Virus record (IMG/VR): IMGVR_UViG_3300026097_000096
Coordinates: 1 to 25,062 of that record
Origin: a virus
Strand: one strand, 5' to 3'
DNA length: 25,062 nucleotides
The position numbers and the translations under genes are program-made. Positions 3,678-21,966 of the stretch are shown here, one piece after another (position 1 is the stretch's first letter; each line of letters begins with the position of its first letter). The notes below the pieces were generated by a model. That model saw only the letters and a program-made list of their open reading frames with translations, did not search any database and was not told where the DNA came from.

Positions 3678-4156
3678 CTGCAGCTGAAATACAGAAGATG
3701 ATTAACATGCGCAACCTGGTCATCCTGCCGTTTGTGCCTGAGCACATGCAGCAGATCGGGCTATCGGCTGCGGATCGAAACATGTTCGCGGCGATCCCTG
3801 ACATTGATGCCAGGCTCGAGCATGTGGCGCGAGAAAAGACGGCCTGGACTATTTTTTATCAGCAGCAGCCAGCGCTAGTCATGGGCCTTGAATACAAATG
3901 GGCCACAAATCATGAGGCGTGGCTGGTGCCAGGAAAGCTGGCGATTGAGCACGGATCATTATTGAGTCGCGGCGCTAAGCGTTTTTTTGATAAGATTGGC
4001 GACAAACTTGGTTTACGGCGCATGCAAATAGTGGTATGTGTCGATCGGGAAAAAGCGGTACAGTGGGCCAAATTTTTACGGTTTGAGCGTGAAGGTCTGA
4101 TGCGCTGCTACGGACCGGAAGGTAAAGACTATTACATGTATGCGAGGACGTATTGA
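3671..4156 (+). CDS. GNAT-like acyltransferase fold protein
   Basis: The product is 161 aa. Size and pattern suggest a GNAT-type fold: an N-terminal helix-rich half with an acceptor-like W/Y region (about 57-80), then a core with HGSLLSRGAKRFFDKI (about 94-109), a strand RMQIVVCVD (about 117-125), a helix (REKAVQWAKFLRFE) and a final strand with DYYMYART. The end resembles phage GNAT-like proteins found near terminase and portal genes in marine podoviruses. The classic acetyl-CoA loop (Q/RxxGxG/A) is not clear, so it may bind another ligand or be inactive. It starts inside the last 7 nt of terL and its stop overlaps the next start by one base, so it belongs to the packaging operon. Substrate unknown. 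Confidence 0.6.
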   Translation: MVTAAEIQKMINMRNLVILPFVPEHMQQIGLSAADRNMFAAIPDIDARLEHVAREKTAWTIFYQQQPALVMGLEYKWATNHEAWLVPGKLAIEHGSLLSRGAKRFFDKIGDKLGLRRMQIVVCVDREKAVQWAKFLRFEREGLMRCYGPEGKDYYMYARTY

Positions 4157-4389
4157 TGGGTGGATTATTTGGCGGCAGCTCGCCCCCAGCTCCAGACACA
4201 AGTAAGCAGGAAGCGCTGCAGGAAAAGCAGGAGGCGCGCACCAAGCGTCAGACTGCTGAAGAGCAGCGTCGTTTAGCAGCACAGCAGCGTGCGCGCCGGT
4301 CAGGCGGTACGCGCTCACTGTTATCGCCAGAGCGTGAAGATGCGCGCCGTGGATTATCAACAACGCTCAGCGGGCGTACAGGAGATTAG
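4156..4389 (+). CDS. Small basic MGGLFGG protein, paralogue 1
   Basis: The product is 77 aa, start ATG 4156 (TGATG overlap with the upstream gene; the TTG codon just before is ignored). It begins MGGLFGG, has a Q/E/K/R-rich helical middle (about 16-47, possibly a coiled coil), and ends with a basic block RSGGTRSLLSP followed by RRGLSTTL. The next gene shares both ends, so the two are tandem duplicates. I do not know a function. Short proteins with a C-terminal RSLLSP- or STILT-type block occur near portal genes in other podoviruses. The strong positive charge and place between terminase and portal allow a guess at a DNA- or head-associated role, but nothing here proves it. Confidence 0.7.
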   Translation: MGGLFGGSSPPAPDTSKQEALQEKQEARTKRQTAEEQRRLAAQQRARRSGGTRSLLSPEREDARRGLSTTLSGRTGD

Positions 4390-4391
4390 TA

Positions 4392-4610
4392 ATGGGTGGA
4401 TTGTTTGGAGGCGGTGGATCAAAACCGGCGCCTAAGCCAGAGCCAAAGCCAGAGCCAAAGCCAGAACCAGAGCGCGTAGATCGTCGCTCTGAAGAGCAGG
4501 CAGCATCATTGCGTGCACGCCGTCGCCGTGGAGCTGGTCGCTCTTTGTTGTCGCCGACTCGAGAAAATGCTCAGACAGGATTGTCACGCACCTTGGGTGG
4601 TGGTGACTAA
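4392..4610 (+). CDS. Small basic MGGLFGG protein, paralogue 2 with KPEP repeats
   Basis: The product is 72 aa, with GGAG at 4381-4384, 7 nt before the ATG. The N-terminus MGGLFGG and C-terminal block (RARRRRG, GRSLLSPTREN, GLSRTLGG) match the upstream gene. The middle is different: a proline/charge-rich KPEP stretch (about residues 14-26) made by a 12-bp tandem repeat. Such segments form stiff extended linkers, as in TonB, which suggests that two end-modules are held apart; this is inference. The stop overlaps the next ATG by one base. Function unknown. Confidence 0.7.
   Translation: MGGLFGGGGSKPAPKPEPKPEPKPEPERVDRRSEEQAASLRARRRRGAGRSLLSPTRENAQTGLSRTLGGGD
4434..4469 (+). repeat. 12-bp tandem repeat, three copies (KPEP coding)
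   Basis: The unit AAGCCAGAGCCA occurs at 4434-4445 and 4446-4457, with a one-base variant at 4458-4469. Each copy encodes KPEP. Repeat number could change by slippage without shifting the frame. Confidence 0.85.
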
Positions 4611-10018: not shown

Positions 10019-11985
10019 GTCGTGTCATTCAGGTCCAGACCAACTTCACTTCTGGTGAGCTGGACCCGAAGCTGCGTGCGCGTATTGATCTGCAGCAGTA
10101 TTACAACGGCATGGAAACGGCTCAAAACATTGTCGTACAACCACAGGGCGGTTTTGTTCGTCGCAATGGATCGAAATACATAACGACATTGCCGGCCTCT
10201 GCAGCTGATGGAGCTCGGTTTGTACACTTTGAGTTCTCAGTCAACGACAGTTATATGCTGTTGTTCGTGGATCAACGCATGTACGTCTTCAAGGACGGGG
10301 TGCAGATTACAGATATCAATGGCTCAGGCAATGATTACCTGACGGTCACCAAGGTGACAGACTCTGTAATTCCAACAATGTGCTGGGCACAGTCAGCTGA
10401 CACACTAATCCTGGTTCAAGAAAACATGGTGCCGCAGCGCATCTTGCGCGGCGCGACTGATGCATCTTGGACTGTCTCAGACCTCAGCTTTGATTTCATC
10501 CCAAAGTTTGCATACACGTTAAGTGTAACTACTCCAGCAGGCACAATTACGCCAGACGCAGAAGACGGGAAAATCACGATTACCGCGTCATCTTCAGTTT
10601 TTAGCAGTGGCAATGTCGATCAGTACATCAATGCGTCTCCACAGGGTAGGGCGCGTATTGTCGAGTTTGTCAGCGCCACAGAGGTCAAGGCTATTACTGA
10701 GGTGCCATTTTTCGACACTTCAGCAGTAAGCTCAGGCGATTGGGATCTGGAGTCTGGATACGAAGACACTTGGTCATCATCTCGAGGCTGGCCTCGGTCT
10801 GCTGTGTTTTACGAAGGGCGACTTTACTTTGGCGGCGCATCATCTCGGCCATCAACACTATGGGCGAGTCGCGTAGGTGACTTTTTTAATTTCGACCCAG
10901 GTGAGTCATTTGATGACGCTGCGCTCGAGGCGACTCTTGATACAGGACGTTTTAACGCCATCATCGATTTGTACGCTGGGCGAAACTTGCAGATCTTTAC
11001 AACGGGTGGCGAGTTCTACATACCTCAAACGCTAGGCGATCCGATTACGCCATCAACCTTGGCTGTACAAGAGCAGACATCAAATGGCGTTCGGCCTGGC
11101 ATACGAGTCGTCAACGTGGATGGGGCGACTGTATTTGTTCAGCGCCAGGGGAAGGCGCTTGCTGAGTTTATCTTTAGCGACACAGTAAACGGTTATATCG
11201 CCACCAAGATATCGCTGCTCTCTTCTCACTTACTCAAGTCGCCAAAAGACATGGCGGTGCGAAAGGCAACCTCAACAGATGAAGGCGACCGGCTTCTTAT
11301 TGTCAATGAGGACGATGGCTCGATTGCCTGCTATACACTGCTGCGCGCCCAGGATGTTATCGCGCCAACAGAATGGACAACTGATGGAGACTACCTGGCG
11401 ATTGGTGTCGACATTGCAGATACATACTCTGTGGTTAAGCGCACGATCGACGGCAGCGACGAATACTATGTCGAGCTGTTTGATGATGATCTAACTCTCG
11501 ATTGCGCCAAGTCAGGCACGACAGCAACCACAGTAACCGGTCTATCTTTCCTGGAAGCAGAGACTGTCAAAGTTATTCGAGACGGGATCATTGAGGCAGA
11601 TAAAACAGTTTCGTCTGGTGAAATTACATTGGACTCCGCAGCAACTGAGTCTTACCAGATTGGGCTCAACTATACACCTCAAGTGACCACTCTGCCTGTT
11701 GAGCCGCGCTTGGCGTCTGGAAACATTCGCGGTTTCAAAAAGCGCATTCTCGAGATTAACTCAGAACACTTTGAATCCCAGGCTGTCACTGTTAATGGAG
11801 AGCAGGTTGCTTTCCGGCAGCTGGGTGAAGACAACCTAGATATTGCAGTACAAGCATTTACAGGAGTAAAAAGGTCTGGCCCTCTGCTTGGTTTTGCAAA
11901 TGAGGGTAAAATCACAATCAGTCAAACAGTGCCGTTGAAGATGAATGTATTGGCACTGGATTACAAAGTATCGGTGGGGCAGTGA
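10015..11985 (+). CDS. Tail tubular protein B (T7 gp12-like nozzle)
   Basis: The product is 656 aa (T7 gp12 is 794). It forms the tail nozzle that contacts the fibres and the cell surface. The family's opening is clear: QTNFTSGELDPKLRARIDLQQYYNG, then AQNIVVQPQGGFVRRNGSKYI, and the SRGWPRSAVFYEGRLYFGG block near 257-275. The long C-terminal part is beta-rich, with SWTVSDLSF and TTLPVEPRLASGN segments typical of the nozzle. No signal or membrane segments. It starts within the ATGA overlap with tube A and ends 1 nt before the gp14-like gene. Confidence 0.93.
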   Translation: MSRVIQVQTNFTSGELDPKLRARIDLQQYYNGMETAQNIVVQPQGGFVRRNGSKYITTLPASAADGARFVHFEFSVNDSYMLLFVDQRMYVFKDGVQITDINGSGNDYLTVTKVTDSVIPTMCWAQSADTLILVQENMVPQRILRGATDASWTVSDLSFDFIPKFAYTLSVTTPAGTITPDAEDGKITITASSSVFSSGNVDQYINASPQGRARIVEFVSATEVKAITEVPFFDTSAVSSGDWDLESGYEDTWSSSRGWPRSAVFYEGRLYFGGASSRPSTLWASRVGDFFNFDPGESFDDAALEATLDTGRFNAIIDLYAGRNLQIFTTGGEFYIPQTLGDPITPSTLAVQEQTSNGVRPGIRVVNVDGATVFVQRQGKALAEFIFSDTVNGYIATKISLLSSHLLKSPKDMAVRKATSTDEGDRLLIVNEDDGSIACYTLLRAQDVIAPTEWTTDGDYLAIGVDIADTYSVVKRTIDGSDEYYVELFDDDLTLDCAKSGTTATTVTGLSFLEAETVKVIRDGIIEADKTVSSGEITLDSAATESYQIGLNYTPQVTTLPVEPRLASGNIRGFKKRILEINSEHFESQAVTVNGEQVAFRQLGEDNLDIAVQAFTGVKRSGPLLGFANEGKITISQTVPLKMNVLALDYKVSVGQ

Positions 11986-11986
11986 T

Positions 11987-12508
11987 ATGAGTTTTGCAGT
12001 AATCGGAGCAATCGCGTCAGGGGTCAGTGCAGTCGCACAGATTCAGGCAGGTAAGGCCCAGGCTAAGGCTTACAGAAACCAAGCTAAGCAAGCAGAGCTA
12101 CAAGGCCGGCAAGAGGCTATAAAGTATCAGCAGCAAGGCACCGCGGTGTTGCGCCGGTTGAGAGAAAACATTTCAGCCACTCGAGCTCGAGCAGCTGGTG
12201 CAGGTCTCGATCCATTTGCCGGCACACCTGCGTCATTCCAGCGCTATGCATTGCGCCAGGGCACACAGGAATATGTCATTGCTCAGGAGAATGCTGTCCT
12301 GGCTAACATTGCTGGCGAGCAGCAGGCGTATCAATACAACGCTGCAGCAAGCCAGGCTCGCCGTCAGGGATACATGGGTGCAGTAAGCAGCCTAGGTGGT
12401 GCGGCCATGGGATTAAGTCAAGGTGGCGCGTTTAGTGGGCTGGGTGGATCTGGCGCAGCGCCAATTCAAACCGCACCTGGATTTACGTCAATGGGACCAG
12501 CAGCGTAA
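11987..12508 (+). CDS. Internal virion (ejection) protein, T7 gp14-like
   Basis: The product is 173 aa (T7 gp14 is 196). In T7-like phages this protein leaves the head first and makes a pore in the outer membrane. The start is ATG 11987, 1 nt after the nozzle stop; an upstream in-frame ATG at 11945 lies inside the nozzle gene and adds nothing family-like. Residues 3-20 (FAVIGAIASGVSAVAQIQ) form a small hydrophobic helix, followed by a Q/A/K/R-rich helix (about 20-60), a central block NISATRARAAGAGLDPFAGTP with RYALRQGTQEY, and a Gly/Ala-rich tail. Composition, size, N-terminal hydrophobic helix and position match gp14. Its stop overlaps the next start by one base. Confidence 0.85.
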   Translation: MSFAVIGAIASGVSAVAQIQAGKAQAKAYRNQAKQAELQGRQEAIKYQQQGTAVLRRLRENISATRARAAGAGLDPFAGTPASFQRYALRQGTQEYVIAQENAVLANIAGEQQAYQYNAAASQARRQGYMGAVSSLGGAAMGLSQGGAFSGLGGSGAAPIQTAPGFTSMGPAA

Positions 12509-14664
12509 TGGCAATTCAACGATACCAAAGAGCAGGGCTGCAGATTGCAAGCCAGCCAAGCATTGATCCAATTGGTGTACGAGAAGGCGCTCGCACGCAG
12601 CAGATGCTTGCGCAGTCAATGGATCGTGTTGCCAGCTTTGCATTCAAGCGCGCAGAGCAGGAGTTTCAGGTTGAGGCGCAGCAGCGTGGTGCGCAGATGG
12701 TTCAGGAGCAAGGCGCTCAGACAATCCTGCAGCAGCTTTCGCAACAAGGCGGTCCATCAGGTCTGATTGAGCAAGAAGCATTTGCAGTCGCAAATCGGAT
12801 TGCTGCAACTGAGGTTGAGACAGAAGGCCGTATTGCAATCAGCAATCTGTTGTCAGAAGCAGAAACAACCAACATGGATTTCGAGACATTCTCTGCTCAA
12901 GTCCAGGACATTAAAGACGGATTCCCTGCGTCGCTTGTGGGCATGGACCCAGAAAGTGCAGCTGTTGTTGGCGCGCGCCTCGACAGTGTAAGTGCAACTG
13001 CGCTCAGCAAGTTTGGTGAGTACACGAACAAGCAGGCAGTACAAGATGCTCAGGGCCGAGCACTACTAGGTATCTCATCTAGACAAAACGATGTTTATGC
13101 GCAGGCTGCTTCAGATATGCCAGCCGAAGAGCGAGATGCCCTGGTTGCTGAGCGCGTTGAAGATATTGCTCAGTTCATGCGCGATCGCCAGTTCACAGAG
13201 TCACAGATATCTCAGATGCAGATTAAGACGCTCGAGCAAGCTCGCGTCGAAGGCATTATCTATGACTTCCAAAATCTGTCTGGCGTCAACGAAAGGCAGG
13301 AGTTTCTCGCAAAGCTCGAAGAAAATCCGCCCAAAGAGCTGGGCGTTGAGGCGACTCGAAACCTCAGAAACTCATTGCGCGCAGATCTCAATCGAGAGGT
13401 CAATTTCTTTGAGGGTGCAGCCAGAGATCTTGAAGCAGAAGTAAAAGACATGCGCACCATTCTCACAAATGGTGGCGACCCTGGTCTTGAGCAGCTTTAC
13501 AACCTTGGCGCAGAGATTGAGAAAACTGGTGCGTTTGGATCTGAAGCGCAACAGGATTACCAAGAGCTGCTTATGCTGCGCGAAGCAACATTAGCATTCC
13601 GCAAGATGCCTCCAGGCGAGCTGCAGCGCACAATCAATGAGATGCGCCAGGGTATGCCTGAGTTTGGTGGAGAAGGTGTGGATACCTTGTTTGAAACTGA
13701 GGTCATCCAGACAGCTGAAGGCATGCTGCGCAACATGAACACGCGACTCGAAGAGGATCCACTTTCATTCGCGGCGGAAACTGGACTCATTACGTTTACG
13801 CCAATCGACTTTGAAAATCCTGCCAACCTAGAGTCATCAATCCAGAAGCGTAAAGAAGATGCATTAAGGGTATCGAGAACATACGCAACTGAGCCTAGAT
13901 TCTTAACAGATGAGGAATCATCGGCCCTGGTCTATTCCATGAAAAACATGGACCGGCTGCAGCGTGCTCGATTCCTAGGCGTAATGAATGAACAGTTTGG
14001 TCGGTACACACCTGATGTACTGGCAGACATCTCAGACAAAGCGCCAGATCTAGCACACATTGGCGGCCTGGTATCTATGGGCAGACTCGAGTCAGTCAAC
14101 TACGCGCTGCAAGGCCAAGACCTTTTAGCGTCGGGCACAAAGGCTGCAGAGTTTACGCCATCGAATACAGATGAATTATTCCGAGACCAGGTTGGTACGG
14201 CGCTTGGATTCCAGACTGACGCAATTGCAGCTGGTCGCCAGGTTGCAGAGCAAATCTATACAGCGATCTCTATTGAGCGAGGATCGACTGAGTTTGATGG
14301 CGAATTGTGGCAGTCATCAATTAACATGGCTTACGGTTTCAACAAGCGTACAGGTCGCGGTGGACTACAAAAAGTTCGCGGCGTGCCTGTGCTGCTGCCA
14401 CCGCAGCTGAATGCAGAAGACGTTGAGACCATGCTTGAAGACCTCGATGTTGATCGCGTCAACGAAGTCACCGGTCTCGATGTCGATGGATTCCTAGTAG
14501 AGCAGATCAGAGACAATGACGATTATTCACTCATGCTAACAGATATGGGCGTGTATCGAATCGTGTACGGATCCCCTGGCATGCCGTCATTCAAAGTCAT
14601 GGCTGACAAGAATGGCAACATTATTGAGCTCGACGCATTGCAGTATCTGGGTGTGAACCAATGA
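12508..14664 (+). CDS. Internal virion (ejection) protein, T7 gp15-like
   Basis: The product is 718 aa (T7 gp15 is 747). It is expected to be an inner core protein that travels into the periplasm to build the DNA tunnel. The sequence is almost wholly helical, Gln/Glu/Ala-rich and without membrane spans: AQSMDRVASFAFKRAEQEFQVE near 35-56, and repeated helix-turn patterns to about residue 450. The C-terminal 200 residues contain more strands (NMAYGFNKRTGRGGLQKVRG and the end GSPGMPSFKVMADKNGNIIELD), possibly a separate folded domain. No lysozyme or transglycosylase motif is visible. It sits between the gp14-like gene and two larger proteins with 1-4 nt overlaps, as in the T7 ejectosome operon. 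The call rests on position and composition. Confidence 0.8.
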   Translation: MAIQRYQRAGLQIASQPSIDPIGVREGARTQQMLAQSMDRVASFAFKRAEQEFQVEAQQRGAQMVQEQGAQTILQQLSQQGGPSGLIEQEAFAVANRIAATEVETEGRIAISNLLSEAETTNMDFETFSAQVQDIKDGFPASLVGMDPESAAVVGARLDSVSATALSKFGEYTNKQAVQDAQGRALLGISSRQNDVYAQAASDMPAEERDALVAERVEDIAQFMRDRQFTESQISQMQIKTLEQARVEGIIYDFQNLSGVNERQEFLAKLEENPPKELGVEATRNLRNSLRADLNREVNFFEGAARDLEAEVKDMRTILTNGGDPGLEQLYNLGAEIEKTGAFGSEAQQDYQELLMLREATLAFRKMPPGELQRTINEMRQGMPEFGGEGVDTLFETEVIQTAEGMLRNMNTRLEEDPLSFAAETGLITFTPIDFENPANLESSIQKRKEDALRVSRTYATEPRFLTDEESSALVYSMKNMDRLQRARFLGVMNEQFGRYTPDVLADISDKAPDLAHIGGLVSMGRLESVNYALQGQDLLASGTKAAEFTPSNTDELFRDQVGTALGFQTDAIAAGRQVAEQIYTAISIERGSTEFDGELWQSSINMAYGFNKRTGRGGLQKVRGVPVLLPPQLNAEDVETMLEDLDVDRVNEVTGLDVDGFLVEQIRDNDDYSLMLTDMGVYRIVYGSPGMPSFKVMADKNGNIIELDALQYLGVNQ

Positions 14665-17600
14665 GTTTCTTGTATGGCAAGAAAGACAAACTAGACGTAT
14701 TACCTGACCAGCTGCAGAGCGAGGCAATGCCTACGCTTATGCAAAACTTTCAGGCTGCGTCTGACTCTGCATATGTCAGCGATCAGTCAGTCAGTAAAGG
14801 TCGACTACTGCAGCAGCAGTGGGAGCCAATTATTGAAGAGGTCAATGCACGCAGCGGCGGCATACCATACCCAAACCCAGCTGACGTTTATCTGGATAAC
14901 GCACTTAGTGGAATTATATTCCCGTCACTTAACGAGTCGACGTACCAAACAGACGCTGACGACATCATTAACCATATCAATGAAAACCCAGATCTTTATC
15001 CAGATCTGTTCGGCATTACTAAAGAAGGGCTGCTCGAAAACTCAAAGGCAGAGGCGCTTGCGCTGCGCCGCGAATACGAAGAGACAGCTGACGATTCACC
15101 AGGCTTTTTGCCTGGCCTTGTGCGCTTTGCGGGTGCAGTACACGGCACAGTGTCTGATCCAGTGCTGCTTTACGCTATGGCGCAAACAAGGGGCGCAACT
15201 GCAGTTCCTGGACTGATGGGCGTTATGTTTCGTGATGCAGCAATCGGCGCAGGTACTGAAGCAATCATCCAGAAAGACGTAAAAGATTGGTACGAAAGTC
15301 TAGGGCTCGATTACACCTGGGAAGACTTTGCCACTAACGTCGCAATCGGTGGTGTCTTTGGTGCCGGCGCACCTCTAGTGTTTAAGATTGGTGGCGACAC
15401 AATCACGCTGACATCGCAGCAAGCGCAGAAAGGATACGAAGCATTAGTGCGCAGCGGTGCGTTTAAGCCAAAAGGCACAACCAAGGCTGCAGAGCGTGCG
15501 CGTGACGCACAGCAAGACATTGCTGATGCCAACCCACTAGAAGATGACAACGTACACCAGGAGCGCATTACAAGAGCTGCAGTGGCAGCTGAGAACAATC
15601 GCCCTCCGGCCATCCCTGATGAGCCGCCTGCTGCAGTCAAACCGCCAAGCAGCGTGTATGACGCAGATAACCTGGACGGCCTGGTGTATCGGTTCGATCC
15701 TAATGAGATCCAAGTCGATGCAGAGACTTTTCAGTTCAAGGCCGGCGGTGACGAGTTTGGTGTATCTGATCGGCTACAGGGCGTCACTGAATGGGATCCG
15801 ATTAAGGCAGGCCAGGTTACTGTCTATGAGTTCGCAGACGGCAATCAGTTTATTGCAGATGGCCACCAGCGCTTAGGTTTAGCAAAACGTATTCAGCAGC
15901 AAGACCCGTCGCAAGACGTTCGTTTGTACGGTCACCTGTTGCGCGAAGTCGATGGCTTTACACCTGAAATGGCCCGAGTCGCAGCTGCGATGAAAAACAT
16001 TGCAGAAGGTACAGGCACAGCAATTGACGCAGCCAAGGTTTTACGCGTCGCACCAGAGCGCATGGGTGAGCTGCCACCGCGATCTGCGTTAGTACGCCAG
16101 GCGCAAGAGCTGACGTTTTTAGATGACGACGTATTTGGCGCTGTTATTAACGGCTTGGTTCCTGCAAACTACGGCGCAGTCGTTGGTCGGTTGATCCCTG
16201 ACAATCCAGGGCTGCAGCAAAACGCAGTAAGTATCCTGGCCAAGACAGATCCTGCAAACGAGTTCCAGGCTGAGTCGATTGTTCGCCAGGTACGCGAAGC
16301 AGGTTTTGAGCAGCGTGAGCAGGTCGGCTTATTTGGCGACGAGCTCATCACAGAATCATATTTCACAGAGCGCGCCAGGATTCTGGATCGAGCTCAGAAA
16401 GCACTACGCCAGGACAAAAATGCATTTAGCAGCCTGGTAAGTAACGCTGATCGGTTGCAAACCGAAGGCAATATCCTGGCACAAAATGCTAACCAAAGGA
16501 GAGCAGAAAATGACGCGCAAGCCCTCGCGCTCCTCCAGGCGCTCGCGAACAAAGTCGGCCCCCTCTCAGACGCCCTTACAGCAGCAGCAAAGCAGGCGAG
16601 AGAAACCGGAAGCTATACAGAACCTACTCGCGGATTCGTCGACGCTATCAGAAGCTCAATTGAGTCAGGCGATTTCGAAAGGATCGGAGCTGGCGATGTT
16701 GGACGCCCTGGCAATGATCCAGCGCAAAGCCGCGTCCGTGCGGATGAAGCAGAGCCAGAGCTCGAAGGATTCGACGACGCAAGCGGAGCCGCAGCAGCAA
16801 GACAGTCAGATCAGCTAACAGAAGATCTGCTTGGTGACGCAGACACTGCCCTGGCAGACCAATTAGCGGAAATCGACAATCCCAAAGTCGTTGAGCGTGC
16901 ATTTAAGGATGCGCAGCCGGTTGAGGCAATCGACGACATTTATGAGATAGCGCCTCAATCCCAAGACTTTATTGTAGGCATTGCTCGAAACATAGAATCA
17001 GATCTAGGCATACAGCTCAAAGATCCTGGATTAAAGAAACCTGAAACAGCTGCAGAAAAAATGACAAGGAAGTCATACGCCAGCGTGCGCGAAATGACAG
17101 ATATTGCTCGAGCAGGATTCATTATTGATTCGCCAGAACAAGCTGAAGAGATTGTGCGCCGGTTTGGTGCCAGGGCTAGGATCTTAGACGAAGGATGGAA
17201 TGTGACTCCGGTCAACTTCTTTGATCGCAAGATACTGGTACAAACGCCAAATGGCTTAGTCGCAGAAATACAAGTCTGGTCCCCAAAACTATTTGAGGCC
17301 AAGTTTTCTGCTGACAATCGATTTGGCATGAAAGGCCAAGACATGTACACAGAGGCTCGAGAAGACGCAACGCCTATTGCGCGCAAAGAAGAGCTCGAGC
17401 AAAACATGCGCGACCTCTATGACGAAGCACTTGCAGCAGAAGATCAGGCGTTTAGAGATTTAGTCGGTACGTCGATTGAGCCAAAGACGCTTTCAAACTT
17501 TGACTTCAGAGCATTCTCAGAGGCAAGCACCTTGCCAGAGTCTGCAACGTCCATTGCGTCGACTGCAGTCCAATCGCCGCCTGGCTCAAGAATAGCGACT

Positions 17601-17861
17601 GCATCGCCCTTGGCAGCAGAGAACAGAATGGCTGGTCGGCCATCCCAATCGACAAATGTAGGTGATGTATCCATAAACCCTCCAGATGTCAGCATAGACG
17701 ACTTGACGCCTGCGATCAACTTGGATGATGAAATACCACTCGATCTACGCGTCGACGACAATGGTGAGCTAGTATCTGGCACAACAACATTACGCCAGAT
17801 CAAAGAAGAGATTGACCAAGACCAGGCAATGCTCGATCGACTCGAAGGATGTATACGATGA
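14661..17861 (+). CDS. Large internal virion protein with ParB-like and RelA/SpoT-like domains (polyvalent-type)
   Basis: The product is 1066 aa. It takes the place of T7 gp16 (1318 aa) in the ejection operon but has no visible transglycosylase. Residues 1-330 are a virion-type helical region with a hydrophobic stretch near 150-240. Residues about 340-545 look like the DdrB-type ParB superfamily domain of polyvalent proteins: YRFDPNEIQVDAETFQFK, then GVTEWDPIKAG, and a FIADGHQRLGLAKRI core (D400, H402, R404). Residues about 755-900 look like a RelA/SpoT-type nucleotidyltransferase: MTRKSYASVREM, DIARAGFIID (D814), NFFDRKILVQTPNG, AEIQVWSPKLFEAKF (E869) and KGQDMYTEAR. The C-terminal 165 residues are low-complexity. 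This suggests an enzyme injected with the DNA; activity is inferred. A second frame inside (16510-16818) has its own ribosome site. Confidence 0.8.
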   Translation: MSFLYGKKDKLDVLPDQLQSEAMPTLMQNFQAASDSAYVSDQSVSKGRLLQQQWEPIIEEVNARSGGIPYPNPADVYLDNALSGIIFPSLNESTYQTDADDIINHINENPDLYPDLFGITKEGLLENSKAEALALRREYEETADDSPGFLPGLVRFAGAVHGTVSDPVLLYAMAQTRGATAVPGLMGVMFRDAAIGAGTEAIIQKDVKDWYESLGLDYTWEDFATNVAIGGVFGAGAPLVFKIGGDTITLTSQQAQKGYEALVRSGAFKPKGTTKAAERARDAQQDIADANPLEDDNVHQERITRAAVAAENNRPPAIPDEPPAAVKPPSSVYDADNLDGLVYRFDPNEIQVDAETFQFKAGGDEFGVSDRLQGVTEWDPIKAGQVTVYEFADGNQFIADGHQRLGLAKRIQQQDPSQDVRLYGHLLREVDGFTPEMARVAAAMKNIAEGTGTAIDAAKVLRVAPERMGELPPRSALVRQAQELTFLDDDVFGAVINGLVPANYGAVVGRLIPDNPGLQQNAVSILAKTDPANEFQAESIVRQVREAGFEQREQVGLFGDELITESYFTERARILDRAQKALRQDKNAFSSLVSNADRLQTEGNILAQNANQRRAENDAQALALLQALANKVGPLSDALTAAAKQARETGSYTEPTRGFVDAIRSSIESGDFERIGAGDVGRPGNDPAQSRVRADEAEPELEGFDDASGAAAARQSDQLTEDLLGDADTALADQLAEIDNPKVVERAFKDAQPVEAIDDIYEIAPQSQDFIVGIARNIESDLGIQLKDPGLKKPETAAEKMTRKSYASVREMTDIARAGFIIDSPEQAEEIVRRFGARARILDEGWNVTPVNFFDRKILVQTPNGLVAEIQVWSPKLFEAKFSADNRFGMKGQDMYTEAREDATPIARKEELEQNMRDLYDEALAAEDQAFRDLVGTSIEPKTLSNFDFRAFSEASTLPESATSIASTAVQSPPGSRIATASPLAAENRMAGRPSQSTNVGDVSINPPDVSIDDLTPAINLDDEIPLDLRVDDNGELVSGTTTLRQIKEEIDQDQAMLDRLEGCIR

Positions 17862-20329
17862 GTTTTCGCAACTGTATCAATAACGCTGAAGCAGAAGGCA
17901 CGATCACCGCAGAACAAGCTGCAGAGGTGCGCGATCTGTTCGATGAGTTTGATGCAGACTATAAAGGCAAAATGGCTCCTGGCTCAGCTGAAGCAAAAGC
18001 AGCTCAAGATGCATTTAACGCGCTGCAGAAAGAAGTCATGGAGCGTAAGCGTCGCAAACTACTGCAGGCTCGAAACTGGCAGCAGATTACATTGAACCTC
18101 CAATCGTATCGCAACTTAAAAGGTGAGCAGGACTTTGGTCGTGCAGCTGAGGCACTGTTTGCAAGCGACGGCTTGGCAAGATATTCAAACATTGAGTTCA
18201 GAGAGCAAGCCGTCAAAAACGCAATGACGCGCAAACTGTACAACGTCTTAGGTGATTTTCGACGCAACGTCATCGGCCAGACAAGAAACAAGGCAAAGCA
18301 AGAAAACATGGCGCGCGCCGCCTTTGGTGAGCAGGTCGAAGATGCTAGCGCTCGAGAGATGGCTGAAGCCTGGAGGGAAACAGCCGAATATGCCAGGAAG
18401 CGTTTTAACGCAGCTGGCGGGCGTATCCCGAAGTTAGAAAACTGGGGATTCCCACAGTCACACAATACACTGGCAATTCGCAAAGTGTCGTTCCAAGAGT
18501 ACAGAGACTTCATTACAGACAAGCTCGACGCGAATCGTATGATCGATCAAAAGACAGGGCTGCCATTTACACCAGAGCGTCTCGAGCTTGCATTGTTCGA
18601 TGTGTACGAAACATTGCGTACAGACGGCATGAACAAACTGACCCCTAGTGGCGCCGGCCGTGGACGATCTTTAGCGAATCAACGCCTAGATCATCGTTTC
18701 CTGGTATTCAAAAACGCAGACTCATGGATGGAATATCAAAAGCGGTTTGGCAACCCAGAGATCTTTGACGCCATGATGGGGCATATCAGCAATATGGCGC
18801 GTGACATTGCGCTTATGGAAGTTCTGGGTCCGAATCCAAACGCCACAGTGCAGTTCCTAAAGCAGACAATCCAGAAGCAAGCTGCAGGTGACGAGGCAGC
18901 AGAATCGGCTGCGCGCAGCGCGGCATCGAGGCTGGACAACTTCTACATGGCCGTCACCGGCAAAACCAATGCGCCGATTAACAGTACATTCGGTTCCTTC
19001 TTTGCTGGTCTGCGCCAGATACTACAAGGTGCACAGCTCGGTTCAGCTGCAATCTCAGCATTGACTGATCTTAACTTTGGCCGCATGGCGCGAGGTTTCG
19101 TCGGATTGCCCCAGACTAAGATGCTTAAAAATTATTTGGACTTTTTGTCACCATTGTCGGCTGACGAAAAAGGGCGCTTGGCGATTCGCATGGGATTGAT
19201 TGCTGAAGGCTGGTCATCATTAGCAGCTGCGCAGATGCGATACGTCGGCGATATTTCTGGCCCTGAGATTACGCGCCGCATATCTGACTTTGTGATGCGT
19301 GCTTCACTGCTTTCGCCAATGACAAATGCAGGGCGCTGGGCATTTGGTATGGAGCTGTTAGGCGGACTTGCTGACAATGTTGGCAAAACTTTTGACCAGC
19401 TTGATCCAAATACTAGAGCTACATTGGAGCGATACAACATTCGCGCCGATCACTGGGACATCATGCGCACCACTGAATTGTACGATCACGAAGGCGCCAA
19501 GTTCCTGCGCGCCGAAGACATTGAGATGCGCACAGACTTATCGCCTACGGTTGCGCAAGACTTGGCGACTCGGGTCATGGAGATGGTCGAAACAGAAACA
19601 AACTTTGCAGTGCCATCGAGCTCGCTGCGTGGCCGTATTGCACTGACAGGTGAAACACGGCCAGGAACCATTGCCGGTGAGCTGACTCGATCGTTTGCCA
19701 TGTACAAAAACTTTGGCGTGACGCTCATTAACACGCACGTTGCTCGAGGCATGCAGCAGCCAGGTGTTAAAGGCAAGGGCCGCTATTATGCAGACCTGTT
19801 AATCTCAACCACATTGATGGGTGCCCTGGCGCTGCAGATGAAAGAAATGTCAAAAGGTCGCGATCCGCGTCCCATGGATAGTAACGAATTTTGGCTGGCT
19901 GCTTTCCTGCAAGGCGGCGGCTTAGGTATCTATGGCGACTTTGCATTTAGTGATGTCAACCGATTTGACCGCGGGCTCGCCGAAACCATTGCAGGGCCGG
20001 TTGTTGGTTTCTCTGATGATCTGAGAAAACTGACTGTCGGTAATTTAGTGCAGGCGGCGCAAGGCGAAGACACGAATGCAGCCAGGGAAGCAATTAAATT
20101 TGCAGGCCGGTACACACCTGGCGCGTCGCTTTGGTATTCACGCCTGGCGCTCGAGCGAATGGTCTTAGACCAAATGCAGCTTTATACAGATCCCAAGGCC
20201 AGATCAAACATGAAGCGCCTAGAATCAAAGTTTCGCCGCGAGTATGGGCAGAAATACTGGTGGCGTCCTGGAAAAACGCAGCCATCAAGAGCACCAGATA
20301 TTAGCAATGCGCTAGAGGAAGCGCCGTAA
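17858..20329 (+). CDS. Large internal virion (ejection) protein, second gp16-like component
   Basis: The product is 823 aa from ATG 17858, inside the ATGA overlap with the preceding gene and 8 nt after AAGGA; an ATG 9 nt upstream lacks a ribosome site. Residues about 1-190 are helical and charged. The middle part, with ENWGFPQSHNTLAIRKVSF, then RLDHRFLVFKNADSWMEYQKRFGNPEIF and GHISNMARDIALMEVLGPNPN (about 190-330), is a pattern seen in large ejection/polyvalent proteins of marine podoviruses. The region 360-460 has small hydrophobic helices. A hydrophobic helix near 645-660 (LLISTTLMGALALQM) could touch a membrane. The C-terminus is basic, ending in YWWRPGK. No catalytic motif is visible. With the 1066-aa protein it may share the job of one T7 gp16. 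Confidence 0.75.
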   Translation: MSFRNCINNAEAEGTITAEQAAEVRDLFDEFDADYKGKMAPGSAEAKAAQDAFNALQKEVMERKRRKLLQARNWQQITLNLQSYRNLKGEQDFGRAAEALFASDGLARYSNIEFREQAVKNAMTRKLYNVLGDFRRNVIGQTRNKAKQENMARAAFGEQVEDASAREMAEAWRETAEYARKRFNAAGGRIPKLENWGFPQSHNTLAIRKVSFQEYRDFITDKLDANRMIDQKTGLPFTPERLELALFDVYETLRTDGMNKLTPSGAGRGRSLANQRLDHRFLVFKNADSWMEYQKRFGNPEIFDAMMGHISNMARDIALMEVLGPNPNATVQFLKQTIQKQAAGDEAAESAARSAASRLDNFYMAVTGKTNAPINSTFGSFFAGLRQILQGAQLGSAAISALTDLNFGRMARGFVGLPQTKMLKNYLDFLSPLSADEKGRLAIRMGLIAEGWSSLAAAQMRYVGDISGPEITRRISDFVMRASLLSPMTNAGRWAFGMELLGGLADNVGKTFDQLDPNTRATLERYNIRADHWDIMRTTELYDHEGAKFLRAEDIEMRTDLSPTVAQDLATRVMEMVETETNFAVPSSSLRGRIALTGETRPGTIAGELTRSFAMYKNFGVTLINTHVARGMQQPGVKGKGRYYADLLISTTLMGALALQMKEMSKGRDPRPMDSNEFWLAAFLQGGGLGIYGDFAFSDVNRFDRGLAETIAGPVVGFSDDLRKLTVGNLVQAAQGEDTNAAREAIKFAGRYTPGASLWYSRLALERMVLDQMQLYTDPKARSNMKRLESKFRREYGQKYWWRPGKTQPSRAPDISNALEEAP

Positions 20330-20341
20330 ATCTGGTATATA
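20328..20341 (+). promoter_or_regulatory. Extended -10-like element before the fibre gene
   Basis: AAATCTGGTATATA holds TGn-TATATA. Its first 13 bases match those at 8100-8112 with a single purine change. It begins in the stop codon of the preceding gene and lies 27 nt before the fibre ATG. No clear -35. Likely a phage promoter or activator site for the fibre operon. Confidence 0.45.
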
Positions 20342-20367
20342 GGAAGGCAATTTAGTCGGAGAGCAAA

Positions 20368-21966
20368 ATGACTGATTACAACATTAACGCAGTGTCTAGG
20401 AAAGTGTCTTATACCGGATCAACCGGTCTAGGCCCGTATGCGTTTTCGTTTGAAATCCTGGCTGAAGGTGACATCGCTGTTTACTTTAACGAGACTCTCC
20501 TGACGCTCACAACAGACTACACGGTCACGATCAATGCCAACGGCACAGGTGAAGTTGACCTGGTAACAGGTGGCAGCATTCCCTCAACACCAACTGCGTC
20601 GGATCTAATTGTCATCCTGGGCGCACGCGACATCGAGCGCACCACCGACTTTGTGACGGCTGGTGACCTACGCGCTGCAGCTCTCAACGAGCAGCTCGAC
20701 GCACTGACGATCTACATGCAGCAGATCAAGGAAGAGGTGGATCGCTCTGTTAAGGCGCCGGCTTTTGACCCGACCGGCATCGACATGGTGCTGCCGAAAA
20801 AGGCAGATCGCGTCAATGCGTTTATTGCGTTTGATGCCAATGGCGATGTGTCGGCAGCTGTACCCTCAGATGACGTAACAACCCTGGCAGAGGTGGCCAC
20901 AGACATTGCGACCTTGGCCGATATCGAAGACGGCACCACTGCAACAGATGCAATCTCTGACACCGCAGCCATTGCGTCGGATGTGACTACAGTGGCCGGC
21001 ATTGCAAGCAACGTGACATCGGTTGCGAATGACGCCACAGACATTGGCACAGTCGCAACAGACCTAGCTGGCGATGATGACATCGGCACAGTGGCTGCCA
21101 ACATTTCAGATGTCAGCTCGGTTGCTGCGATTGACAGCCAGGTGAGCTCGGTTGCAGCTGATGCCACAGACATCGGTACTGTGGCCACAGACCTTGCTGG
21201 TTCTGACACGATCGGCACAGTGGCTGGTATTGCTTCTGATGTATCAGCGGTCGCGGCGATTGACACAGACGTAACCACAGTCGCAGGTATCGACTCAGAT
21301 GTGACAGCGGTCGCAGCTGATGCGACGGACATCGGTACAGTCTCGACAAACATTGCCAACGTCAACACGGTGGCCGGTATCTCTGGCAACGTGACGACGG
21401 TTGCAGGCATTGATTCAGATGTGACAGCAGTGGCCGCAGATGCAACTGACATCGGCACAGTATCAACGAACATCGCCAATGTGAATACGGTTGCTGGGAT
21501 CTCGGCCGACATCGGCACACTGGCCGACATTGAGGACGGCACTGTTGCGACGACAGCAATCTCTAGCCTGGCTGCACTTGAGACAGAGATCCTTGGGTTG
21601 TACGCCCAGCTCGCAGACATTGCGACGAAGGTGAATCGCTCAGGCGACACAATGACAGGCGATTTGATCCTGGATACGACGGGTGCGTTGACACTGCCAG
21701 TGGGTACAGAGGCACAGCGTCCGACTCCAGTGAAAGGGATGTTCCGATTCAACGATGACGAAGATCAGTTTGAAGGATACGACGGAGCTGCATGGGGAGC
21801 TGTCGGCGGTGGTAACACGGCTGTCGTCGGATGGGAAAACCAGATTACAGTGTCTGAGGATTACACGATGACAACAGGTAACAACATGGTAAGTGCGGGG
21901 CCGATCACGATTGACACAGGCTACACCGTCACAGTACCAACAGGATCAAGATGGGTGGTGGTGTAA
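20368..21966 (+). CDS. Tail fibre protein with T7 gp17-type N-terminal domain and repeats
   Basis: The product is 532 aa (T7 gp17 is 553). The N-terminal 130 residues are the T7 fibre anchoring domain: VSYTGSTGLGPYAFSFEIL, then LTTDYTVTINANG, ILGARDIERTTDF and LNEQLDALTIYMQQIKEEVDRS. This end plugs into the tail near the nozzle. Residues about 170-395 are a degenerate repeat array (ATDIGTV, NTVAGI, DVTAVA units), probably an extended trimeric shaft. Residues about 400-475 are a junction with NRSGDTMTGDLILDTTG and then FRFNDDEDQFEGYDG, a segment common in phage fibres. The short C-terminal part ends in a beta-rich strand. It has no large receptor-binding head of its own, so the following small fibre genes may supply binding. 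The ribosome site is GGAG. Confidence 0.92.
   Translation: MTDYNINAVSRKVSYTGSTGLGPYAFSFEILAEGDIAVYFNETLLTLTTDYTVTINANGTGEVDLVTGGSIPSTPTASDLIVILGARDIERTTDFVTAGDLRAAALNEQLDALTIYMQQIKEEVDRSVKAPAFDPTGIDMVLPKKADRVNAFIAFDANGDVSAAVPSDDVTTLAEVATDIATLADIEDGTTATDAISDTAAIASDVTTVAGIASNVTSVANDATDIGTVATDLAGDDDIGTVAANISDVSSVAAIDSQVSSVAADATDIGTVATDLAGSDTIGTVAGIASDVSAVAAIDTDVTTVAGIDSDVTAVAADATDIGTVSTNIANVNTVAGISGNVTTVAGIDSDVTAVAADATDIGTVSTNIANVNTVAGISADIGTLADIEDGTVATTAISSLAALETEILGLYAQLADIATKVNRSGDTMTGDLILDTTGALTLPVGTEAQRPTPVKGMFRFNDDEDQFEGYDGAAWGAVGGGNTAVVGWENQITVSEDYTMTTGNNMVSAGPITIDTGYTVTVPTGSRWVVV
20880..21570 (+). repeat. Degenerate coding repeats of the fibre shaft
   Basis: The stretch encodes many variants of DVTTVAGI / ATDIGTV / NIANVNTVAGIS. 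The clearest pair is 21280-21384 and 21400-21504, spaced 120 nt (40 residues): the 35 residues are identical but 22 of 35 codons differ, all at synonymous positions. Confidence 0.85.

What the first reader, a model, noticed from the sequence alone, without database searches (positions are those of the whole stretch)
14661..17861. Ejection protein carrying ParB-like and RelA/SpoT-like domains: possible virion-delivered effector
In the slot of T7 gp16 lies a 1066-aa protein whose residues ~340-545 resemble the DdrB/ParB domain (core DGHQRL) and ~755-900 resemble a RelA/SpoT nucleotidyltransferase (KSYAS, DIARAG with D814, NFFDRKIL, AEIQVW with E869). Such domains are known from the polyvalent proteins of phages and conjugative elements, which enter cells with DNA. 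Here they are embedded in a T7-like core operon, so each infection could inject an enzyme acting on nucleotides or on tRNA/ATP before phage genes are read. Seen: motifs and operon. Known: polyvalent and MuF-linked RelA/SpoT domains. Inferred: activity and delivery.
Basis: partly seen in the sequence, partly recalled or inferred. Interest (0 to 1): 0.78.

Follow-up and report, generated by a model that had tools for sequence, protein, structure and literature searches.

The report
Swappable enzyme cassette in phage ejection protein
A short-tailed marine virus of bacteria builds an alarmone-making enzyme (related to a known bacterial weapon) into one of the proteins it probably injects with its DNA, and related viruses swap different enzymes in and out at exactly this spot, which suggests that they carry interchangeable weapons inside the particle.

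Summary
Window 14661-17861 is a real 1066-aa ORF. Residues 748-938 are a RelA/SpoT-type (RSH) pyrophosphokinase: profile hit to Tas1 (5.8e-15), model pLDDT 95, best structural matches all RSH synthetases. D814 and E869 are invariant in 49 relatives. Residues ~340-550 match ParB/Noc structures.

The larger finding is that the RSH domain is an exchangeable cassette. Against the nearest relative, DNA is ~77% identical on both sides (14521-16831 and 17671-20843), but residues 724-1003 are replaced by a different domain. Among 117 non-redundant proteins of this slot, the site holds an RSH (37), a zeta-toxin-like kinase (36), another RSH-like domain (8, plus one with both), nothing (21), or rarer domains (PBECR1 RNase, ADP-ribosyltransferase-like, another RSH clade). 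A ~40-aa C-terminal tail is kept. The core tree needs 21 cassette changes.

Genes on both sides are epsilon15/phiV10-type ejection genes, so the slot matches epsilon15 gp16, not T7 gp16 by homology. No immunity gene fits: 68 of 74 cassette-bearing genes abut or overlap the next gene.

Best reading: a polymorphic, virion-carried effector delivered by the ejectosome. Folds and swapping are shown; packaging, delivery and activity are inferred.

The parts
14661..17861 (+). whole gene: 1066-aa ejection-slot protein with ParB-like core, exchangeable RSH cassette and conserved C-terminal tail
   Evidence: ORF; full-length relatives; start and stop codons overlap neighbouring genes
14661..15620 (+). 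N-terminal module (residues 1-320), mostly helical, low-confidence Gly/Ala-rich stretches; the part shared with slot proteins that lack ParB and cassette
   Evidence: Vibrio phage ZCVPP1 615-aa protein matches profile positions 23-321 only (2.9e-23) and a gut phage slot protein 119-312 (6e-14); the gut protein carries a GH108 domain instead; model
15678..16310 (+). ParB-like region (residues ~340-550: nucleotide-binding-type domain plus helical part)
   Evidence: Foldseek: top 14 PDB hits ParB/Noc/Spo0J, ~216 columns; D400-R404 invariant in 45 sequences
15858..15875 (+). DGHQRL motif (residues 400-405)
   Evidence: D400 G401 H402 Q403 R404 invariant in 45 aligned cores
16308..16796 (+). conserved helical remainder of the core (residues 550-712)
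   Evidence: alignment A6 and model
16832..17670 (+). exchangeable cassette (residues ~724-1003)
   Evidence: no blastn match to L014/L094 here, ~77% identity on both sides
16902..17474 (+). RelA/SpoT-type synthetase domain (residues 748-938)
17100..17102 (+). D814, predicted metal-binding Asp (aligns with the catalytic Asp of Rel-type synthetases)
   Evidence: invariant 49/49; alignment to Tas1 and 3l9d
17265..17267 (+). E869, predicted ExQ Glu
   Evidence: 48 of 48 sequences with a residue there; alignment to Tas1
17730..17858 (+). conserved C-terminal tail (residues ~1024-1066, ..LRQIKEEIDQDQAMLDRLEGCIR)
   Evidence: kept across all cassette types and in cassette-less proteins; 88% identical to L014 in the last bin
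11945..12508 (+). gp14-like internal virion protein
   Evidence: PF24072 weak 0.0076; phrog_418 internal virion protein 5.5e-15
12508..14664 (+). gp15-like ejection protein (718 aa)
   Evidence: phrog_992; family profile matches phiV10p18 at 2.5e-35
17849..20329 (+). epsilon15 gp17/phiV10p20-type virion protein (826 aa), directly downstream, overlapping start
   Evidence: phrog_684 5.4e-182; phiV10p20 6.8e-198 by family profile; tblastn

Best explanation
The gene encodes an ejection-type virion protein of an epsilon15/phiV10-like podovirus whose C-terminal half is a loading bay for exchangeable enzymes. The N-terminal module and the short C-terminal tail probably hold it in the internal core and ejectosome (inferred); the ParB-like core probably binds nucleotide or DNA (fold shown, activity inferred). 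The cassette, here an RSH pyrophosphokinase of the Tas1/Apk-like group, probably travels through the tail with the DNA and acts in the cytoplasm at the start of infection, transferring pyrophosphate from ATP to a nucleotide (most likely making (p)ppApp or (p)ppGpp; tRNA is not excluded). That would drain ATP or slow host synthesis before phage genes are read, or arrest a competitor. Relatives load a zeta-type kinase, an RNase or an ADP-ribosyltransferase-like domain for the same broad purpose.
For: Folds and catalytic conservation. Exchange at one site with intact flanks: window vs L014; core tree with 21 changes of cassette type, window (A) sister to L014 (C) at full support, L004 (B) sister to L084 (zeta), L077 (A) sister to L079 (zeta). 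Conversely, type A cassettes of distant backbones share 48-64% with the window over the RSH bins while most N-terminal bins share about 22-44%. Repertoire: 37 RSH, 36 zeta, 8 type C plus one with both, 21 without cassette, 7 other, 7 cut, of 117; zeta PF06414 4.3e-19 to 4.5e-34, Walker A 43/43; PBECR1; ART-like and another RSH clade. Context: gp15-type gene upstream and gp17-type gene downstream seen together in 85 of 117. Every cassette type needs cytosolic substrates (ATP, NAD, RNA), an argument from known chemistry.
Against: No proteomics or infection data exist for these phages here; nearly all members are metagenomic. No enzyme assay. No immunity gene is seen at the site, so either the enzyme is held inactive before ejection, immunity lies elsewhere, or it is not toxic to the producer. 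About 18% of slot proteins have no cassette, so it is dispensable. T7 ejection proteins partly unfold to pass the portal; refolding of an enzyme domain is assumed.
Confidence: 0.66

Rival explanations
1. The enzyme acts in the producing cell, late in infection: it is made with the virion proteins and shuts down host metabolism, stops superinfecting phages or weakens the wall before lysis; the virion attachment is secondary.
For: Late-gene position means production in the infected cell is certain if expressed. Zeta kinases attack wall precursors, which could help lysis. No immunity gene is seen, which is less of a problem if late toxicity is tolerated.
Against: Fusion between an ejection-type N-terminus and a conserved C-terminal tail would be unnecessary for a cytosolic late toxin; in the loci read at this site the enzyme was always part of the slot protein.
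Confidence: 0.17
2. The cassettes are not weapons on the host but tune the infection decision or counter a host defence (alarmone or NAD-based immunity, lysogeny choice), as proposed for MuF proteins.
For: 6 of 33 contigs, some only fragments, carry an integrase, so some are temperate; MuF authors propose lysogeny effects (PMC5576092).
Against: The mix of RSH, zeta, RNase and ART-like domains is that of toxins; no known defence is countered by all of them.
Confidence: 0.12
3. The domains are catalytically dead structural filler or a neutral insertion site.
For: 21 of 117 slot proteins lack any cassette.
Against: K792, K800, D814, R817, D855 invariant in 49 of 49 and E869 in 48 of 48; Walker A in 43 of 43.
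Confidence: 0.04
4. Assembly chimeras or misread frames create the apparent swaps.
For: All close relatives are metagenomic contigs.
Against: Continuous reading frames in 117 non-redundant proteins from many samples, same boundaries, plus isolate genomes (Aureimonas with PBECR1, Stappia without cassette).
Confidence: 0.01

Closest known systems
MuF polymorphic toxins of temperate phages, including Apk2 ((p)ppApp synthetase) (PMC5576092, PMC12226406)
   Same: phage structural-module protein with variable enzymatic domain, including RSH domains; proposed delivery with the phage
   Different: carrier here is a podovirus ejection-slot protein with a ParB-like core, not MuF; cassette lies before a conserved C-terminal tail instead of at the end; no adjacent small immunity ORF (68 of 74 cassette-bearing genes abut the next gene, against 89.4% of MuF toxin genes followed by a small ORF)
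Polyvalent proteins of phages and conjugative elements (PMC5512222)
   Same: multidomain late-gene proteins with ParB, RelA/SpoT, PBECR, ART or zeta domains
   Different: that survey places RelA/SpoT in epsilon-proteobacterial and spirochaete phages and in MuF fusions, and zeta in conjugative elements and MuF fusions; here one slot of one podovirus gene cluster exchanges them; no metallopeptidase domain found
Tas1/Apk1, type VI secretion effector, (p)ppApp synthetase
   Same: closest solved structure and sequence match of the RSH domain
   Different: delivered by T6SS with an immunity protein; about 19% identity in the structural alignment
T7 gp16 and epsilon15/phiV10 gp15-gp17 ejection proteins (PMC8954989)
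   Same: gene order, position and homologous neighbours (epsilon15 type)
   Different: known domain swapping there concerns peptidoglycan hydrolases; the review contains no occurrence of effector, toxin or nuclease
Phage P1 DdrB
   Same: ParB-type domain in a protein packaged in the head (reported in PMC5512222)
   Different: Pfam DdrB-ParB model not matched here; no C-terminal peptidase found

Membership tests
RSH (RelA/SpoT homologue) synthetases | synthetase fold | tested here: met
   model pLDDT 95; all best PDB matches are RSH synthetases
RSH (RelA/SpoT homologue) synthetases | basic ATP-binding residues, catalytic Asp, G-loop Tyr, ExQ Glu | tested here: met
   K792, K800, D814, R817 49/49, E869 48/48; G-loop Tyr in 48 of 49, Phe in the window
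Pfam RelA_SpoT (PF04607) | match to the Pfam RelA_SpoT model | tested here: not met
   no Pfam hit for the window protein; one relative, L113, reaches 1.4e-5, just under the cut-off. Superfamily membership rests on fold and Tas1 homology, not on this model
RSH (RelA/SpoT homologue) synthetases | pyrophosphate transfer from ATP | not testable with these tools
   needs biochemistry
Toxic SAS / Apk group (ppApp or tRNA) | toxicity and product specificity | not testable with these tools
   nearest structures Tas1 and SaEAS, which does not fix the product
ParB/Srx superfamily | ParB nucleotide-binding fold with conserved Arg in the pocket | tested here: met
   14 top PDB matches ParB/Noc/Spo0J; R404 invariant in 45
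DdrB-like ParB (phage P1 type) | family-specific profile and conserved Tyr helix | tested here: inconclusive
   no Pfam match up to E=1; Tyr helix not examined
MuF polymorphic toxins | N-terminal MuF domain | tested here: not met
   no MuF hit
MuF polymorphic toxins | variable C-terminal toxin followed by small immunity ORF | tested here: not met
   cassette precedes a conserved tail; no room for an immunity ORF in 68 of 74
Polyvalent proteins | multidomain late-gene protein with domains of this repertoire | tested here: met
   late-gene context
Polyvalent proteins | transferred into the host with DNA | not testable with these tools
   inferred from neighbours only
T7 gp16 | sequence homology incl. 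N-terminal transglycosylase | tested here: not met
   no such domain found; neighbours are epsilon15-type
Podovirus ejection proteins (epsilon15 type) | position between gp15-type and gp17-type genes | tested here: met
   both neighbours seen in 85 of 117 loci
Podovirus ejection proteins (epsilon15 type) | presence in virion and ejection | not testable with these tools
   needs proteomics
Zeta toxin (relatives' cassette) | PF06414 profile and Walker A | tested here: met
   4.3e-19 to 4.5e-34; Walker A 43/43

The most novel reading that the evidence does not exclude
Podoviruses have their own polymorphic-effector system: the ejectosome protein is the delivery vehicle, a defined site in it accepts interchangeable enzymes (RSH synthetase, zeta kinase, RNase, ADP-ribosyltransferase-like), and self-protection comes from packaging and timing, with no immunity protein. 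Each infection would then begin with a hit on host nucleotides, wall precursors or RNA before any phage gene is transcribed.
Probability: 0.45. Interest if true: 0.87.

Novelty: new variant of a known kind. Interest (0 to 1): 0.73.

Why it matters
Ejection proteins are usually seen as the tube for DNA. If one of them carries interchangeable enzymes, short-tailed phages deliver proteins as a secretion system does, and the cassette site offers a way to find new effectors by reading what lies between two conserved flanks. It also extends virion-delivered alarmone synthetases from MuF phages to a large group of marine and environmental podoviruses, and the lack of an adjacent immunity gene poses a clear question: how does the producing cell survive until assembly? 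The natural with- and without-cassette pairs make it testable.

Tried and rejected
Pfam and NCBIfam on the window protein gave nothing useful, so domain calls rest on PDB profile and fold searches. The profile of the ParB region found no PDB match by sequence; only the structure comparison did. Type C cassettes have no PDB match; profile comparison with RSH gives E 3.2e-5, probability 73%, so 'divergent RSH' is probable, not shown. The first neighbour search with the 826-aa protein found only 4 viral loci. Cyanophage P-SCSP1u was checked as an isolate group with a ParB-containing protein in the same region; its cryo-EM paper has no mention of mass spectrometry or internal core proteins. Supplementary mass-spectrometry tables of phage PhiGT1 could not be opened. 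A search for type B RSH, and for the other RSH clade, in 50,697 phage records found none. DNA polymerase A was sought as a lytic marker and not found in 33 contigs. Profiles containing the tail gave false zeta/type C hits in cassette-less proteins; the final tally used tail-free profiles.

Full report
What is there. The window is a 25,062-base virus record with a podovirus late region: terminase, portal (PF12236, 1.4e-99), capsid-region genes, tail tube genes, then three internal-protein-type genes and a tail fibre. The ORF of the finding, 14661-17861, is open, has an ATG start that overlaps the stop of the preceding gene, and ends over an in-frame start of the next. All named motifs are present at the stated residues.

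The two domains are real. Sequence search of the protein against solved structures finds one hit, Tas1 (6ox6), a type VI secretion (p)ppApp synthetase, over residues 751-900 (2.3e-5). The profile of 27 relatives gives Tas1 at 5.8e-15 and the exported Streptomyces synthetase 8vx3 at 1.4e-5. The predicted structure of residues 748-938 has mean pLDDT 95.1, and all its best PDB matches are RSH synthetases, Tas1 first. In 49 relatives K792, K800, D814, R817 and D855 never vary, and E869 is present in all 48 that cover it; the G-loop Tyr is Tyr in 48, Phe in the window protein. The core model (pLDDT 74) is weaker, but its top 14 structural matches are all ParB, Noc or Spo0J over about 216 columns, and D400-R404 are invariant. 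Sequence profiles alone do not show ParB, and the Pfam DdrB-ParB model is not matched.

The RSH domain is a cassette. Eight full-length relatives in viral contigs align well up to residue ~712 and again over the last ~40 residues; between them the sequences fall into different domain types. The closest relative, L014, is about 77% identical in DNA over 14521-16831 and 17671-20843 with no match between: residues 724-1003 have been replaced. The tree of the core (72 rows) needs 21 changes among five states; the window (type A) is sister to L014 (type C) at full support, L004 (B) to L084 (zeta), L077 (A) to L079 (zeta). The reverse also holds: type A domains on distant backbones share 48-64% with the window over the RSH bins, while most N-terminal bins share about 22-44%.

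The repertoire. Over three searches and a tail-free classification there are 117 non-redundant slot proteins: 37 RSH, 36 zeta, 8 type C, 1 with both RSH and type C, 21 with a short or no insert, 7 other, 7 cut by contig ends. Zeta cassettes reach PF06414 at 4.3e-19 to 4.5e-34 and all 43 examined keep a Walker A motif. Others include PBECR1 RNase domains in two Aureimonas genomes (1.2e-8 and 5.3e-8), an ART-like domain (DUF3990 2.1e-4, ART-PolyVal 2.2e-3; below curated cut-offs) and an RSH of another clade (PF04607 1.4e-5, just below cut-off). Type C is probably a divergent RSH, not proven.

The context. The downstream 826-aa protein is related to phiV10p20, an epsilon15 gp17-type protein (family profile 6.8e-198), and the upstream 718-aa protein to phiV10p18 (2.5e-35). 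phiV10's gene between them, p19 (600 aa), has no detectable similarity to the core. The slot is therefore positionally epsilon15 gp16. A Vibrio phage protein shares only the N-terminal module (2.9e-23), and a gut phage slot protein joins part of that module to a GH108 peptidoglycan hydrolase domain; this fits an ejection protein that carries interchangeable functions. Epsilon15, P22 and T7 eject internal proteins (PMC8954989), and epsilon15 gp15 and gp17/16 are assigned to its injection device (PMC12391199). Both neighbours are seen in 85 of 117 loci; many of the other loci are cut short by contig ends.

No immunity gene. In 68 of 74 cassette-bearing loci the slot gene abuts or overlaps the next virion gene; only 2 have 200 bases or more between. 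[quoted passage not shown]

How it most likely works. Shown: the folds, the conserved catalytic residues, the repeated exchange at one site, the conserved flanks and neighbours. Inferred: packaging in the internal core, passage through the tail with DNA, and action in the cytoplasm. The inference rests on the neighbours and on the fact that all cassette types need ATP, NAD or RNA. The product of this RSH domain cannot be told; nearness to Tas1 makes (p)ppApp plausible, (p)ppGpp and tRNA remain open.

Comparison. The nearest concepts are MuF polymorphic toxins and polyvalent proteins. It is not a MuF protein (no MuF domain, no adjacent immunity ORF, cassette not at the end). It fits the broad description of polyvalent proteins, but that survey reports RelA/SpoT in phages of other hosts and zeta in conjugative elements and MuF fusions. 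A review of ejection proteins reports swapping of peptidoglycan hydrolases and contains no occurrence of effector, toxin or nuclease. Literature coverage here is limited to open-access papers, so prior description cannot be excluded.

Limits. Nearly all cassette-bearing members are metagenomic; no virion proteomics was available; 6 of 33 contigs carry an integrase, so lifestyle is mixed, and the window's own lifestyle is unknown because its record is probably a fragment. The tallies depend on searches that kept the best 80 loci of 198 and of 460, so proportions are indicative.

Noticed in passing
4153-4389 and 4392-4610: Two adjacent small ORFs look like tandem paralogues (M-GGLFGG...RSLLSP.RE.A..GLS.TL.G).
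   Followed up: no
20368-21966: Tail-fibre-like protein with repeated units of the form VTTVAGIDSDVTAVAADATDIGTVSTNIANVNTVAGI.
   Followed up: no
L011:9805-21543 (Ruegeria phage 45A6) and L012:8624-16315 (cyanophage P-SCSP1g): The same ParB-like core is embedded in giant proteins (3912 and 2563 aa) of other phages, the second in a T7-like gene order; the rest of these proteins is unassigned.
   Followed up: partly
window 14661-17861, residues 344-655, against PHROG family phrog_21: A phage family annotated as portal protein ends in the ParB-like core (profile about 1014-1349 of 1362), so the core also seems to be joined to another virion protein.
   Followed up: no
L103:5889-10037 and L108:4860-10010 (Aureimonas genomes): Probable prophage slot proteins carry a PBECR1 RNase domain after the core.
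   Followed up: partly
L178:7111-7683, L183:7099-7746, L028:8173-8595, L077:3872-4507: Extra domains of about 150 aa lie between core and RSH cassette; L178 and L183 contain a DGNST motif reminiscent of another ParB-like domain; none is identified.
   Followed up: partly
L191:5795-9001 (gut phage MT835618): Slot protein joins part of the N-terminal module to a GH108 peptidoglycan hydrolase.
   Followed up: yes
L137:6958-7629: Slot protein cut by the contig end with an unidentified domain after the core.
   Followed up: partly
L010 (HQ332136, Dunaliella viridis virus SI2): Deposited as a virus of an alga, but its gene content is that of a tailed bacteriophage of this group, so the host label is doubtful.
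   Followed up: no
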